Assembly (NCBI GenBank): GCA_019120125.1
Contig: DWVR01000057.1
Span: 1 to 64,000 of the forward strand
Direction of reading: 5' to 3'
DNA length: 64,000 bases
Origin: Candidatus Phocaeicola excrementigallinarum
GTDB taxonomy: Bacteria > Bacteroidota > Bacteroidia > Bacteroidales > Bacteroidaceae
The translations under genes and the position numbers were made by a program. This document shows, in pieces, positions 18,304 through 64,000 of this stretch. The notes beneath the pieces are model-generated. The model was given only the letters and a program-made list of their open reading frames with translations. It was not told the origin of the DNA and made no database searches. Positions within the stretch are counted from its first letter, which is position 1. Each line of letters begins with the position of its first letter.

Positions 18304-18356
18304 GGCACGACACGGCCTGAGAGACAGGAACTTCCAGGTCGAATCACACACTCCTG

Positions 18357-18440
18357 AAAACATCAAGGCGTTTTACCTGAAACGCCGAAGTGTTTTTTAA
18401 AAACGTCAAGGCGTTTTGACCAAAACGTCTTGACGTTTTT
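18357..18440. repeat. Four-unit palindromic array (copy A)
   Basis: Four imperfect 18-20 nt palindromes of the form AAAACGTCAAGGCGTTTT sit head to tail at 18357-18375, 18379-18398, 18399-18417 and 18422-18440, with centres 20-23 nt apart. Each unit is itself a potential hairpin, and neighbouring units can also pair. A second four-unit array of the same family lies at 62417-62503. Here it fills the gap between dedA and the alcohol dehydrogenase gene. Confidence 0.85.
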
Positions 18441-55102: not shown

Positions 55103-55654
55103 ATGTATGACCCCAAGATTCATCACCGCAAAAGCATAAGGTTGCCCGAATATGATTACAGTGCAGAAGGTTTTTATTTCATCACAATCTGCACACAGGA
55201 GAAAAGATGTGCGTTCGGAAAAATCGTTGACAAGGAGATGGTATTAAATAAGGCAGGAAAGATTGTGAAAGACGAATGGTTAAGAACAATAGAAATAAGG
55301 AAAGACGATGTCACATTACACGAATTCATTGTGATACCAAATCATTTTCATGCCATTGTTCAGATTTGTAGGGGCGTATCGAATACGCCCGAAAACATCC
55401 ACAAGGACAATCACATAAATGATTGCAAGTGCATTCAGGGCGTATTCGATACGCCCCTACAATCACCATCAAAATCATTAGGTGCAATTGTACGTGGGTT
55501 TAAAAGTGCAGTCTCCAGACAATTAGGCCATTCCGTCTGGCAACGAAACTATTACGAGCACATCATCCGCAACCAGCGTTCATACGAAATGATTGCTGGC
55601 TATATTTTAAACAATCCCTATGTCTGGGAAAAAGATATGTTTTATATACCTTAA
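55103..55654 (+). CDS. REP-associated tyrosine transposase (RAYT, Y1/HUH type)
   Basis: 183-residue single-strand transposase-like protein. 'RRKSIRLPEYDYSAEGFYFITICTQ'-like N-terminus (here 'HHRKSIRLPEYDYS'), the HUH metal motif 'IPNHFHAIV' and the nucleophile helix 'YYEHIIRNQRSYEMIAGYILNNP' place it in the IS200/REP-associated group. Residues about 89-120 are an insert encoded by an exact 23-nt inverted repeat pair (55368-55390, 55438-55460). Base composition is more A+T rich than thiC and thiH on either side. It lies in frame orientation between thiC and thiH, 6 bp before thiH, without breaking either gene. It may be catalytically active; this is not testable here. Confidence 0.9.
   Translation: MYDPKIHHRKSIRLPEYDYSAEGFYFITICTQEKRCAFGKIVDKEMVLNKAGKIVKDEWLRTIEIRKDDVTLHEFIVIPNHFHAIVQICRGVSNTPENIHKDNHINDCKCIQGVFDTPLQSPSKSLGAIVRGFKSAVSRQLGHSVWQRNYYEHIIRNQRSYEMIAGYILNNPYVWEKDMFYIP
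55368..55460. repeat. REPIN-like inverted pair inside the transposase gene
   Basis: Two 23-nt sequences (55368-55390 and 55438-55460, core GGGGCGTATCGAATACGCCC) are exact reverse complements with a 47-nt spacer. Each one is also a near-palindrome around TCGA. The 93-nt unit is a multiple of three and is translated as 'GVSNTP...GVFDTPL'. This matches the REP-REP layout mobilised by RAYT proteins. Confidence 0.88.
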
Positions 55655-61150: not shown

Positions 61151-62380
61151 ATGTACGTATTCCGATCCATACACGAAATCACCAACACCATTGCAGTAGC
61201 CAGAGGACTGCTCACGGCGATGTTCGAGAAAAGGAAATCACTCAGTTTCCGCTATGCCGACGCACTCGCCCTGCTCAAAGACGATGAGAACCGCCTGAAA
61301 CTTCTTCTTGAAAAAGAAGTCATCCGACAGAACGGCAATTTTGTGGAACTCGACGCACGCTTTCTCGATTTTTTCGAAATGTTGCTTGAGGCGAATGAGG
61401 AAATCAACACTGCCGCCATCAACGAAAACATCGAGTACCTGCACGAACTGATGGACTATTATGGCAAGGAACAGATCGCATCGCGCAAGGAAAGCTATGT
61501 GAGAAACATCAAGATGACTTTCCAGAAAATCGAGCGGACCACCCTCCGTAACGTCATGAACCTGCAAAGCAGCATCGACCATGCCTTCAAACATGAGCCG
61601 ACCTACCAGATAAAGATCGCCAAGCTTGAGAATCTCGACAAGAAGCGCGTCAATATCCAGCAGCTTATCGACACCACGGAGAACCTGATCCTTCATGAGG
61701 AAAGGAGATTCTTCCAGCAAGCCACTGACGAGGAACTGCAACGCATACTGCTCGAACTAAGGAGCGGACTGCAGCTCTCCGCCCACAGCCTGATCCGGGC
61801 GCAACAAGACATCATCAACTACCTGAACCAGATAAAAAGCCAGGTCATTCTGGTAGAGAAAATCAGGAAACTGAAATACCTGCATGACACCTTTGAACTT
61901 CGTGCGCGGAGCAACCTCACCGAAGTAGTGGCACGGGAACACTCGGTACTCATGGAAGGCACCCCACCTTCATCGTTCAAGCTATCCGTGAACTATCTGG
62001 GCACCGACGAGGCACGGCCCGTGATACTCAAAGTGCTCCGCAACCTGCAATACCGCGAGACCGTACGCAGCAACGAGGCCGGAGCGTTCAGCGAGGAGGA
62101 TATGGAAATACCTGCCATGTACGAGCAAGTCATCGACCTCGACGAGACGACAAGCGATTATCTGCAAGCCCAGGCTCAGGTATGCTGGAACAACGCTCAA
62201 GCCAGACAGGAAGACCTGTTCTCCTATCTGATGCGGTATACCTTCAAACGGGATGTGGGCGAGCAGGAACGCACCACCATCTTCTGCCAGATTGTCTCGC
62301 TCTATGAGTCGCAGTTCCGCATCAGCGACACATACGGAACCTATAAGGAATTTGAGTATGCCAAGGTATATCCGGCCTGA
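61151..62380 (+). CDS. MksF/JetA-like condensin subunit (kleisin-type)
   Basis: 409-residue, almost wholly helical and charged protein: 'FRSIHEITNTIAVARGLLTAMFEKRKSLSFRYADALALL' is a winged-helix-like start, the middle has long coiled stretches ('YVRNIKMTFQKIERTTLRNVMNLQSSI', 'ATDEELQRILLELRSGLQLSAHSLI'), and 'FKRDVGEQERTTIFCQIVSLYESQF' closes it. Size, helix pattern and order before a roughly 200-residue MksE/JetB-like and an SMC-type ATPase gene match the kleisin gene of MksFEB/Wadjet (JetA) operons. Sequence alone is not specific enough to choose between chromosome-organising Mks and plasmid-targeting Wadjet. Confidence 0.75.
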   Translation: MYVFRSIHEITNTIAVARGLLTAMFEKRKSLSFRYADALALLKDDENRLKLLLEKEVIRQNGNFVELDARFLDFFEMLLEANEEINTAAINENIEYLHELMDYYGKEQIASRKESYVRNIKMTFQKIERTTLRNVMNLQSSIDHAFKHEPTYQIKIAKLENLDKKRVNIQQLIDTTENLILHEERRFFQQATDEELQRILLELRSGLQLSAHSLIRAQQDIINYLNQIKSQVILVEKIRKLKYLHDTFELRARSNLTEVVAREHSVLMEGTPPSSFKLSVNYLGTDEARPVILKVLRNLQYRETVRSNEAGAFSEEDMEIPAMYEQVIDLDETTSDYLQAQAQVCWNNAQARQEDLFSYLMRYTFKRDVGEQERTTIFCQIVSLYESQFRISDTYGTYKEFEYAKVYPA

Positions 62381-62561
62381 CACCACACTCTTCCACAATA
62401 CAAAAAAACAAGAAATAAAAACGCCTTGACGTTTTACTTAAAACGCCCTGACGTTTTGCCTGAAACGCCGAAGCGTTTTTCCAAAAACGTCAAGACGTTT
62501 TTTCAGGCCTCGTAGAACACTGTAACATAACCATTTAAAAAACCGAAATTATCCGACCGAC
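62381..62561. other. Gap between MksF-like and MksE-like genes
   Basis: 181 bp within an operon, much longer than is usual for linked subunits. It is largely filled by a palindromic array (62417-62503), plus a short A+T-rich stretch before the next ATG. No frame or promoter box could be supported. Confidence 0.6.
62417..62503. repeat. Four-unit palindromic array (copy B)
   Basis: Units at 62417-62434, 62440-62457, 62462-62480 and 62483-62503, form AAAACGCCTTGACGTTTT with variants, with centre spacing of about 22 nt. Same family and unit count as 18357-18440. In transcribed RNA it could form several hairpins between the two subunit genes. Confidence 0.85.
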
Positions 62562-63149
62562 ATGGAACTGAACATACGAATACCCGACCATACGTCCGTC
62601 CTTTTCGACTACCTGCAGAAAGGGCAGTTCATCTGCTCGAACAGTTGCGACGAGACGGTACGCGACATGTATGAGATGATAGACGACAATTTCGAGGCGC
62701 TCTCACTCTATTTCTTGCAGATTGGCTACACGCTGGAGCGCGGAAACGAATATTTCTACTTCTCACGGACAGAACCCCGGGCCACTCTCGAGCAGAAAAT
62801 CCTGCGCGCATACTACTGGATTGACGTACTTGACCTGTTCAAGACTTACGACGAGACATTCGGTGCGGGCTGCCGCTTCCAGCCGGAACAGATTCTGGTG
62901 GAAGCCAACATCAACGTGGCCCTGCAAAACAAGCTCGACGGAATGAGAAAACACTTCTCCGACAGGGAAGTCCGCAAGGACGTGCTCGACAATATCATCC
63001 GCCAGCTCGCAAAAGAATCGTTCATCGAACTGGAAAACGAGAAATCGAACACCTACAAGGTGCTCAGCGCATGGCACTATCTGGAACGATTGATAGAAAG
63101 CATCCAAATTTTTGACGAAACAGAAGAAGAAAATGAGAAACCTGAATAG
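62562..63149 (+). CDS. MksE/JetB-like condensin subunit
   Basis: 195-residue protein expected to be the KITE-type winged-helix partner of the kleisin. 'HTSVLFDYLQKGQFICSNSCDETVRDMYEMIDDNFEALSLYFLQIGYTLERGNEYFYFSR' and 'FRQPEQILVEANINVALQNKL'-like blocks, then 'RKDVLDNIIRQLAKESFIELENEKSNTYKVLSAWHYLERLI', match the size and pattern of MksE/MukE/JetB proteins. Its end overlaps the start of the SMC-type ATPase gene by 17 bp, typical of coupled subunits. Confidence 0.72.
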   Translation: MELNIRIPDHTSVLFDYLQKGQFICSNSCDETVRDMYEMIDDNFEALSLYFLQIGYTLERGNEYFYFSRTEPRATLEQKILRAYYWIDVLDLFKTYDETFGAGCRFQPEQILVEANINVALQNKLDGMRKHFSDREVRKDVLDNIIRQLAKESFIELENEKSNTYKVLSAWHYLERLIESIQIFDETEEENEKPE

Positions 63150-64000
63150 AATCATTTTTATCAACAGTGCAAACATCCCGTATGCCGATGACATCTATCT
63201 GGACGGAAATGTCCACTTCATCGGCACCCAGGGAGTAGGAAAAAGCACCATCCTGCGCGCCATCCTGTTCTTCTACAACGCCGATACCCAGAAACTGGGA
63301 ATCCCTGTGGAAAAACAGAGCTATACGGAATATTATTTCCCCTACTCCAACTCATACATCGTCTATGAGGTGGCCACAGAAAACGGGGCGTTCTGCATAC
63401 TCAGCTTCAAGTCGATGGGACGTGTGTGCTACCGCTTCATCGACTCTCCCTACCGCAAGGAGTTCTTTATCGGAGAGAACCGTACGGCATATTCCGGCAC
63501 CGACCGCATCCGCGCGGCACTCGATCAGTGGAAGGTGGACTACTCACGCATCATCTACACATACGACGAGTACAGGAACATTCTGTACGGAAACGGGACA
63601 GACCCGGAAATGGGACGCTACGCGCTTATGGAAAGCAAACAATACCAGAATATACCACGCACCATACAGAACGTGCTTCTCAACTCCAGACTCGATGCCG
63701 AATTCATAAAGAAGACCATCATCTCATCCATCAACGAGGACGAGACAGCCATTGACCTGAACACCTATAAGGAGCATCTCAAGAACTTCGAGACCCGTCT
63801 GCGCGACATCGAGGAGTTTCAGAAACGGGAGACCCAGAAGCAGGCAAAGGAAATCACCGCACTCTCACAACAAGTGTCCCGCCAACAGGCGGCACTGGTG
63901 CAAGGATGTCGCGAACTGGCCACCGCCTACCGCAAGGCAACGGAAATGCTGCCGCAATGGAACGGAAAAAGACAAAAAGCGGAAACGGAACGCGACGGAT
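63133..64000 (+). CDS. SMC-like ATPase (MksB/JetC/MukB-type), truncated by window edge
   Basis: Open from the ATG at 63133 to the end of the window (289 codons), so only the N-terminal part is seen. 'VHFIGTQGVGKSTILRAILFFYNAD' contains Walker A (residues 31-39). The ABC-head extension 'YTEYYFPYSNSYIVYEVATENGAFCILSFKSMGRVCYRFID' follows. A coiled coil begins near residue 220 ('KEHLKNFETRLRDIEEFQKRETQKQAKEITALSQQVSRQQ'). This matches MksB/JetC-type ATPases. Signature and Walker B motifs would lie beyond the window. Whether a JetD/MksG nuclease gene follows cannot be seen, so the assignment as Mks or Wadjet stays open. Confidence 0.82.
   Translation, partial: MRNLNRIIFINSANIPYADDIYLDGNVHFIGTQGVGKSTILRAILFFYNADTQKLGIPVEKQSYTEYYFPYSNSYIVYEVATENGAFCILSFKSMGRVCYRFIDSPYRKEFFIGENRTAYSGTDRIRAALDQWKVDYSRIIYTYDEYRNILYGNGTDPEMGRYALMESKQYQNIPRTIQNVLLNSRLDAEFIKKTIISSINEDETAIDLNTYKEHLKNFETRLRDIEEFQKRETQKQAKEITALSQQVSRQQAALVQGCRELATAYRKATEMLPQWNGKRQKAETERDG

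What the first reader, a model, noticed from the sequence alone, without database searches (positions are those of the whole stretch)
61151..64000. Condensin-like MksFEB / Wadjet (JetABC-like) cluster at the right edge
Seen: three genes in order, a helical 409-residue protein, a 195-residue winged-helix-type protein and an SMC-type ATPase with GTQGVGKST, the last two overlapping by 17 bp. Known: MksFEB and JetABC(D) share this order; JetD/MksG cleaves plasmid DNA. Inference: a defence or chromosome-folding system in a Bacteroidales genome, possibly divergent from the characterised types. The decisive fourth gene is outside the window.
Basis: partly seen in the sequence, partly recalled or inferred. 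Interest (0 to 1): 0.75.

Follow-up and report, generated by a model that had tools for sequence, protein, structure and literature searches.

The report
Nuclease-free MksFEB condensin in Phocaeicola
This gut bacterium carries a three-part DNA-looping motor whose relatives use a fourth part to cut up plasmids, but here the cutting part is gone; because the whole genus also lacks the usual bacterial chromosome-organising motor, this is a good candidate for part of the missing chromosome organiser in these gut bacteria.

Summary
The window ends inside a three-gene operon, mksF-mksE-mksB: 409 aa, 195 aa and 1218 aa (read to the end outside the window), with a 17-bp overlap between the last two. 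MksE hits Pfam MksE (9e-42), MksB hits DUF3584 (1e-64), and the MksF model matches MukF and JetA.

A strong terminator hairpin follows mksB and the genome has no MksG match. The genus is Phocaeicola. In it, two Mks types occur. Type B always has a fourth gene where the contig reaches it, a JetD-like nuclease. Type A (this locus, also P. vulgatus) lacks it in 18 of 20 loci with readable downstream DNA; two relatives keep it at exactly that position. MksF, E and B stay under strong purifying selection (dN/dS about 0-0.09). All 61 Phocaeicola genomes lack ScpA, ScpB and a true Smc.

Best reading: a MukBEF-superfamily condensin related to Wadjet/MksBEFG, acting on the chromosome rather than cutting plasmids. 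Composition is well supported; function is inferred, and 10 of 37 good genomes have no Mks at all, which tempers a housekeeping claim.

The parts
61151..62380 (+). mksF, kleisin subunit, 409 aa: N-terminal winged helix, long helices, flexible linker, C-terminal winged helix
   Evidence: no Pfam/PADLOC/NCBIfam match of weight (8-10); AlphaFold2 model pLDDT 77.5 (70); the first nine PDB fold matches are chains of MukBEF, MukF or JetABCD entries
62417..62502 (.). four palindromes (AAACGYC..GRCGTTT type) spaced 22 bp in the mksF-mksE gap; fold into a strong hairpin as RNA; role unknown (possible attenuator or a dispersed intergenic repeat)
62562..63149 (+). mksE, KITE (winged-helix) subunit, 195 aa
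   Evidence: Pfam PF21980 MksE 9.2e-42, over cut-off
63133..64000 (+). mksB, SMC-type ATPase; the first 289 of 1218 aa lie in the window, the gene continues to contig position 66789. Walker A GTQGVGKST (31-39); signature LSNVGSEGTD (1114-1123) and Walker B LHCMMDE (1151-1157) lie outside the window and are conserved
   Evidence: (PF12128 1.4e-64)

Best explanation
The locus encodes a complete MukBEF-superfamily SMC complex, MksF (kleisin), MksE (KITE) and MksB (SMC ATPase), that lacks the MksG/JetD nuclease. Shown here: gene content, family and fold assignments, absence of the nuclease, intact ATPase motifs, purifying selection, and absence of ScpA, ScpB and a true Smc in the genus. Inferred: MksB dimers closed by MksF, with MksE bound to it, load on DNA and extrude or hold loops using ATP. 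Without MksG the complex has no known way to cut closed circles, so it most likely acts on the chromosome (compaction, segregation), as MksBEF does in P. aeruginosa. It probably arose from a four-subunit plasmid-cleaving ancestor by loss of mksG.
For: MksE PF21980 9e-42, a family that also rings in C. glutamicum and E. coli controls; MksB DUF3584; MksF fold matches MukF/JetA. No fourth gene, and a terminator hairpin of -28.2 kcal/mol (z -8.95) right after mksB. No MksG match in the window's genome or in the one-contig genomes G207 (P. vulgatus) and G155. In relatives the fourth gene is JetD-like (PADLOC JetD1 5e-10; PF09983 just under cut-off) with a TopoVI-A/Spo11 fold. dN/dS about 0-0.09 across type A pairs. 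MksF identity tracks UvrB identity, Spearman 0.70, n=20; shared housekeeping neighbours prs and B12-radical-SAM in seven loci each. ScpA 0/61, ScpB 0/61, Smc over cut-off 0/61 in the genus; ScpA 0/148 in the order but 127/148 in the phylum sample. Precedent: P. [quoted passage not shown]
Against: 10 of 37 good Phocaeicola genomes have no MksB of any kind and no Smc-ScpAB, so the complex is not required in the genus; the closest relative by UvrB, G192, is one of them. Two type A loci keep MksG, so the clade has been in defence use at least in part. On bare counting, two gains of MksG cost fewer steps than several losses. The contig ends 287 bp after mksB and the assembly is 93% complete. No expression, Hi-C or knock-out data.
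Confidence: 0.62

Rival explanations
1. Plasmid control without cutting: MksFEB recognises and compacts or silences small circular DNA, or interferes with its segregation, so it remains a defence or plasmid-control system without MksG.
For: Nested among MksG-bearing complexes; patchy presence within the genus resembles an accessory system.
Against: Mostly vertical inheritance among housekeeping neighbours; in C. glutamicum mksG deletion has the same plasmid effect as mksB or mksF deletion (PMC10123090), so the SMC part alone gave no plasmid control there.
Confidence: 0.2
2. Ordinary Wadjet/MksBEFG whose nuclease lies just beyond the contig end or elsewhere in the genome.
For: Contig ends 287 bp after mksB; in L139 and L144 mksG sits about 700-900 bp further on; assembly 93% complete.
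Against: Terminator right after mksB. No MksG match in the genome with a type A MksG query. One-contig genomes of relatives lack it, and 18 of 20 readable type A loci lack it.
Confidence: 0.1
3. Decaying remnant of a Wadjet system that has lost its effector and its function.
For: Nuclease gone; one type A mksB (L127, a draft assembly titled P. sartorii) is split into two frames.
Against: dN/dS about 0-0.09 for F, E and B over large synonymous distances; ATPase motifs conserved; mksB open in 21 of the 22 type A loci examined.
Confidence: 0.04
4. SbcC/RecN-like ATPase with unrelated neighbours.
For: Shared P-loop ATPase fold.
Against: MksE at 9e-42, constant F-E-B order in dozens of genomes, MukF fold of ORF1.
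Confidence: 0.01

Closest known systems
[quoted passage not shown] PMC10586767, PMC7485682)
   Same: Three subunits described as acting without a nuclease, MukBEF superfamily; chromosomal role
   Different: Pseudomonas also has SMC; Phocaeicola has no Smc-ScpAB. Different phylum, with nuclease-bearing members nested in the same genus and clade
MksBEFG of Corynebacterium glutamicum / Wadjet JetABCD
   Same: Subunit order F-E-B, KITE family PF21980, SMC ATPase, kleisin with MukF/JetA fold
   Different: No MksG/JetD fourth gene, so no known way to cut plasmids
MukBEF of enterobacteria
   Same: Kleisin fold, KITE subunit, gene order F-E-B (order from memory); no nuclease
   Different: MksB is 1218 aa (MukB about 1486, from memory), and the MksB profile finds no MukB of known structure by sequence at E 0.01
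Type B MksFEBG of Phocaeicola (this work, L097-L112)
   Same: Same gene order, MksF 32-36% identical, same genus
   Different: Carries the DUF7281/JetD-like nuclease gene; sits in a separate branch of the MksB tree

Membership tests
MksBEF (MukBEF-superfamily condensin) | KITE subunit MksE | tested here: met
   PF21980 9.2e-42, 143.6 bits against cut-off 27
MksBEF (MukBEF-superfamily condensin) | SMC ATPase with Walker A, signature and Walker B motifs and a long coiled-coil region | tested here: met
   PF12128 1.4e-64 (32); motifs conserved in 21 homologues. Coiled coil read from sequence only
MksBEF (MukBEF-superfamily condensin) | Kleisin subunit MksF | tested here: met
   AlphaFold2 model; the first nine PDB fold matches are all chains of MukBEF, MukF or JetABCD entries, but TM-scores are low (0.15-0.28) because of flexible helices
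MksBEF (MukBEF-superfamily condensin) | Organises the chromosome | not testable with these tools
   needs Hi-C, imaging and knock-out
Wadjet / MksBEFG plasmid defence | MksG/JetD nuclease (TopoVI-A-like, TOPRIM) with the complex | tested here: not met
   absent downstream and in the genome; 287 bp to the contig end and 93% completeness leave a small gap
Wadjet / MksBEFG plasmid defence | Recognised by defence-system models | tested here: not met
   PADLOC: 0 hits for F and E; MksB only 44 residues of JetC at 4e-4
Smc-ScpAB | ScpA and ScpB partners, SMC_prok_B score | tested here: not met
   0/61 genomes in the genus for each

The most novel reading that the evidence does not exclude
In a gut genus that lacks Smc-ScpAB altogether, a plasmid-cleaving Mks complex was disarmed by losing its nuclease, probably more than once, and recruited as the cell's only condensin. 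It would be one of the 'currently unidentified SMC complexes' proposed for Bacteroides-like bacteria.
Probability: 0.35. Interest if true: 0.75.

Novelty: new variant of a known kind. Interest (0 to 1): 0.55.

Why it matters
A Hi-C study of mouse gut bacteria found no known condensin in its two Bacteroidetes species, yet saw arm alignment in B. [quoted passage not shown] Here the absence of ScpA extends to a sample of 148 genomes of the order, and a concrete candidate complex is named in Phocaeicola, including P. vulgatus ATCC 8482. It is not shown to be the answer for Bacteroides itself: the two genomes sampled from another genus of the family had no MksE. The genus also holds near-identical complexes with and without the nuclease (G165 and G157, about 92% identical DNA up to the mksB stop), a natural comparison for how an SMC motor moves between defence and chromosome work.

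Tried and rejected
Profile searches of the four subunits against PDB sequences gave nothing credible; the MksE hit to PsaD and the MksB hit to a helical spike construct look like composition matches. PF23947 (DUF7281) proved too insensitive to find type A MksG, so absence rests on a direct MksG protein query. I sought an empty site in G192 by fetching 60 kb near uvrB; the comparison returned no homology to the window, so nothing can be said. A replacement effector next to type A loci was looked for: no downstream gene family is shared by more than four loci. MksG relics: tblastn of six MksGs against up to 5 kb downstream hit only L089 and L092. The acyl-carrier-protein hit of MksF (10) is far below cut-off and taken as chance.

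Full report
CHECK. The window is the first 64,000 bases of a 67,076-base contig (C35) of a 2.75-Mb, 93% complete draft genome. Reading on, mksB ends at contig position 66789 and encodes 1218 aa. Only 287 bp follow before the contig ends.

IDENTITY. MksE is a clear PF21980 member (9.2e-42); the same family also rings in C. glutamicum and E. coli in the control set. MksB matches DUF3584 (PF12128; PADLOC's JetC model of that domain is described as MukB-like) over most of its length (1.4e-64), with Walker A, signature and Walker B motifs conserved across 21 homologues. MksF has no sequence match of weight in Pfam, PADLOC or NCBIfam. Its AlphaFold2 model (35 sequences, pLDDT 77.5, pTM 0.42) has winged-helix ends around long helices, and its best PDB fold matches are chains of MukBEF, MukF and JetABCD entries. 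TM-scores are low, so this is support for the fold family, not a precise model.

NO NUCLEASE. Directly after mksB lies a 19-bp stem (-28.2 kcal/mol, z -8.95), a terminator-like hairpin; several other type A loci, P. vulgatus among them, also show a hairpin there by eye. A direct search with a type A MksG found no match in this genome, nor in the one-contig genomes G207 and G155.

TWO TYPES IN ONE GENUS. A scan of named genomes places the genus as Phocaeicola (P. vulgatus, plebeius, coprocola, coprophilus, barnesiae, faecium). Of 61 genomes, 33 carry MksF: 22 type A (72-100% identical to the window) plus one fragment, 16 type B (32-36%), 6 with both. DUF3584 finds the same 33 genomes, so there is no sign of a third type. 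Type B loci have a fourth gene of 278-302 aa wherever the contig reaches it. Type A loci lack it in 18 of 20 cases with readable downstream DNA; the window and L096 reach too close to a contig end to count. The two exceptions are G161 (P. faecium) and G165.

THE FOURTH GENE IS A JETD-TYPE NUCLEASE. The G161 protein scores as JetD in PADLOC (5e-10) and just under the cut-off for JetD_C. Its model (pLDDT 86) has TopoVI-A and Spo11 as the top six fold matches, the fold reported for MksG (PMC10123090). E153 and the D203/D205 pair are invariant in 23 homologues.

LOSS OR GAIN. Type A plus Parabacteroides form one supported branch in a tree where nearly all other members carry MksG. The two type A MksGs are each other's closest relatives among 78 (support 100/99). 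G157 and G165 share about 92% identical DNA up to 5 bp past the mksB stop, where G165 begins mksG with an overlapping TAATG; G157 keeps TAATG followed by unrelated sequence. These favour loss. Against it, bare step counting prefers two gains, and the two type A MksGs are only 43% identical where about 59 +/- 5.5% is typical for MksBs this close. Fast evolution of a dispensable nuclease, or two related acquisitions, would both explain that.

STILL IN USE. In type A pairs dN/dS is about 0-0.09 for MksF, MksE and MksB. MksF identity to the window follows UvrB identity (Spearman 0.70, n=20; 0.77 without the discordant G161; identities), and neighbours such as prs and the B12-radical-SAM gene recur. 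Inheritance is therefore mainly vertical, with losses.

NO OTHER CONDENSIN. ScpA 0/61, ScpB 0/61 and Smc over cut-off 0/61 in the genus; ScpA 0/148 in the order. The ScpA model works in the phylum: 127 of 148. MksE occurs in only 20 of 148 genomes of the order, so Mks cannot be the general solution there, and 10 of 37 good Phocaeicola genomes have neither system.

READING. Composition: nuclease-free MksFEB, well supported. Function: chromosome organisation by loop extrusion is inferred from family knowledge and the P. aeruginosa precedent (PMC10586767). The link to the unidentified SMC complexes of Bacteroides (PMC10197239) is a lead for Phocaeicola, not an answer for Bacteroides. I found no paper in the held library describing this complex, but the library is partial.

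Noticed in passing
window 62417-62502 and 18350-18440: Tandem 16-bp palindromes (AAACGYC..GRCGTTT type) spaced 22 bp, in gaps between genes: 6 matches of AAACGN6CGTTT in the window against 0.12 expected. Similar arrays lie in other Phocaeicola loci (L079, L080, L082, L085). Dispersed repeat or protein-binding array; unexplained.
   Followed up: partly
window 55103-55654: Short ORF with a weak Y1 transposase match (PF01797, 0.002, under cut-off) sits between thiC and thiH, same strand; in G156 the two genes are only about 65 bp apart. Looks like a REP-associated transposase in a thiamine operon.
   Followed up: partly
L002 6946-6998 (contig C35 66946-66998, outside the window): Large hairpin, 20-nt arms, RNA fold -45 kcal/mol, near the contig end; no copy of its arm in the window with up to 2 mismatches.
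   Followed up: partly
L097-L112, fourth genes: Pfam DUF7281 (PF23947) appears to cover JetD/MksG-like nucleases: type B fourth genes match it, and a type A one that matches it models as TopoVI-A.
   Followed up: partly
L130, L186 (Parabacteroides): Parabacteroides MksFEB, the sister branch of type A, also lacks an adjacent MksG.
   Followed up: partly
order of the window: ScpA missing in all 148 sampled genomes of the order and MksE present in only 20; most have no condensin found by these models.
   Followed up: partly
L127 6968-10653: mksB of this type A locus (record titled P. sartorii) is split into two overlapping frames; sequencing error or real break not resolved.
   Followed up: no
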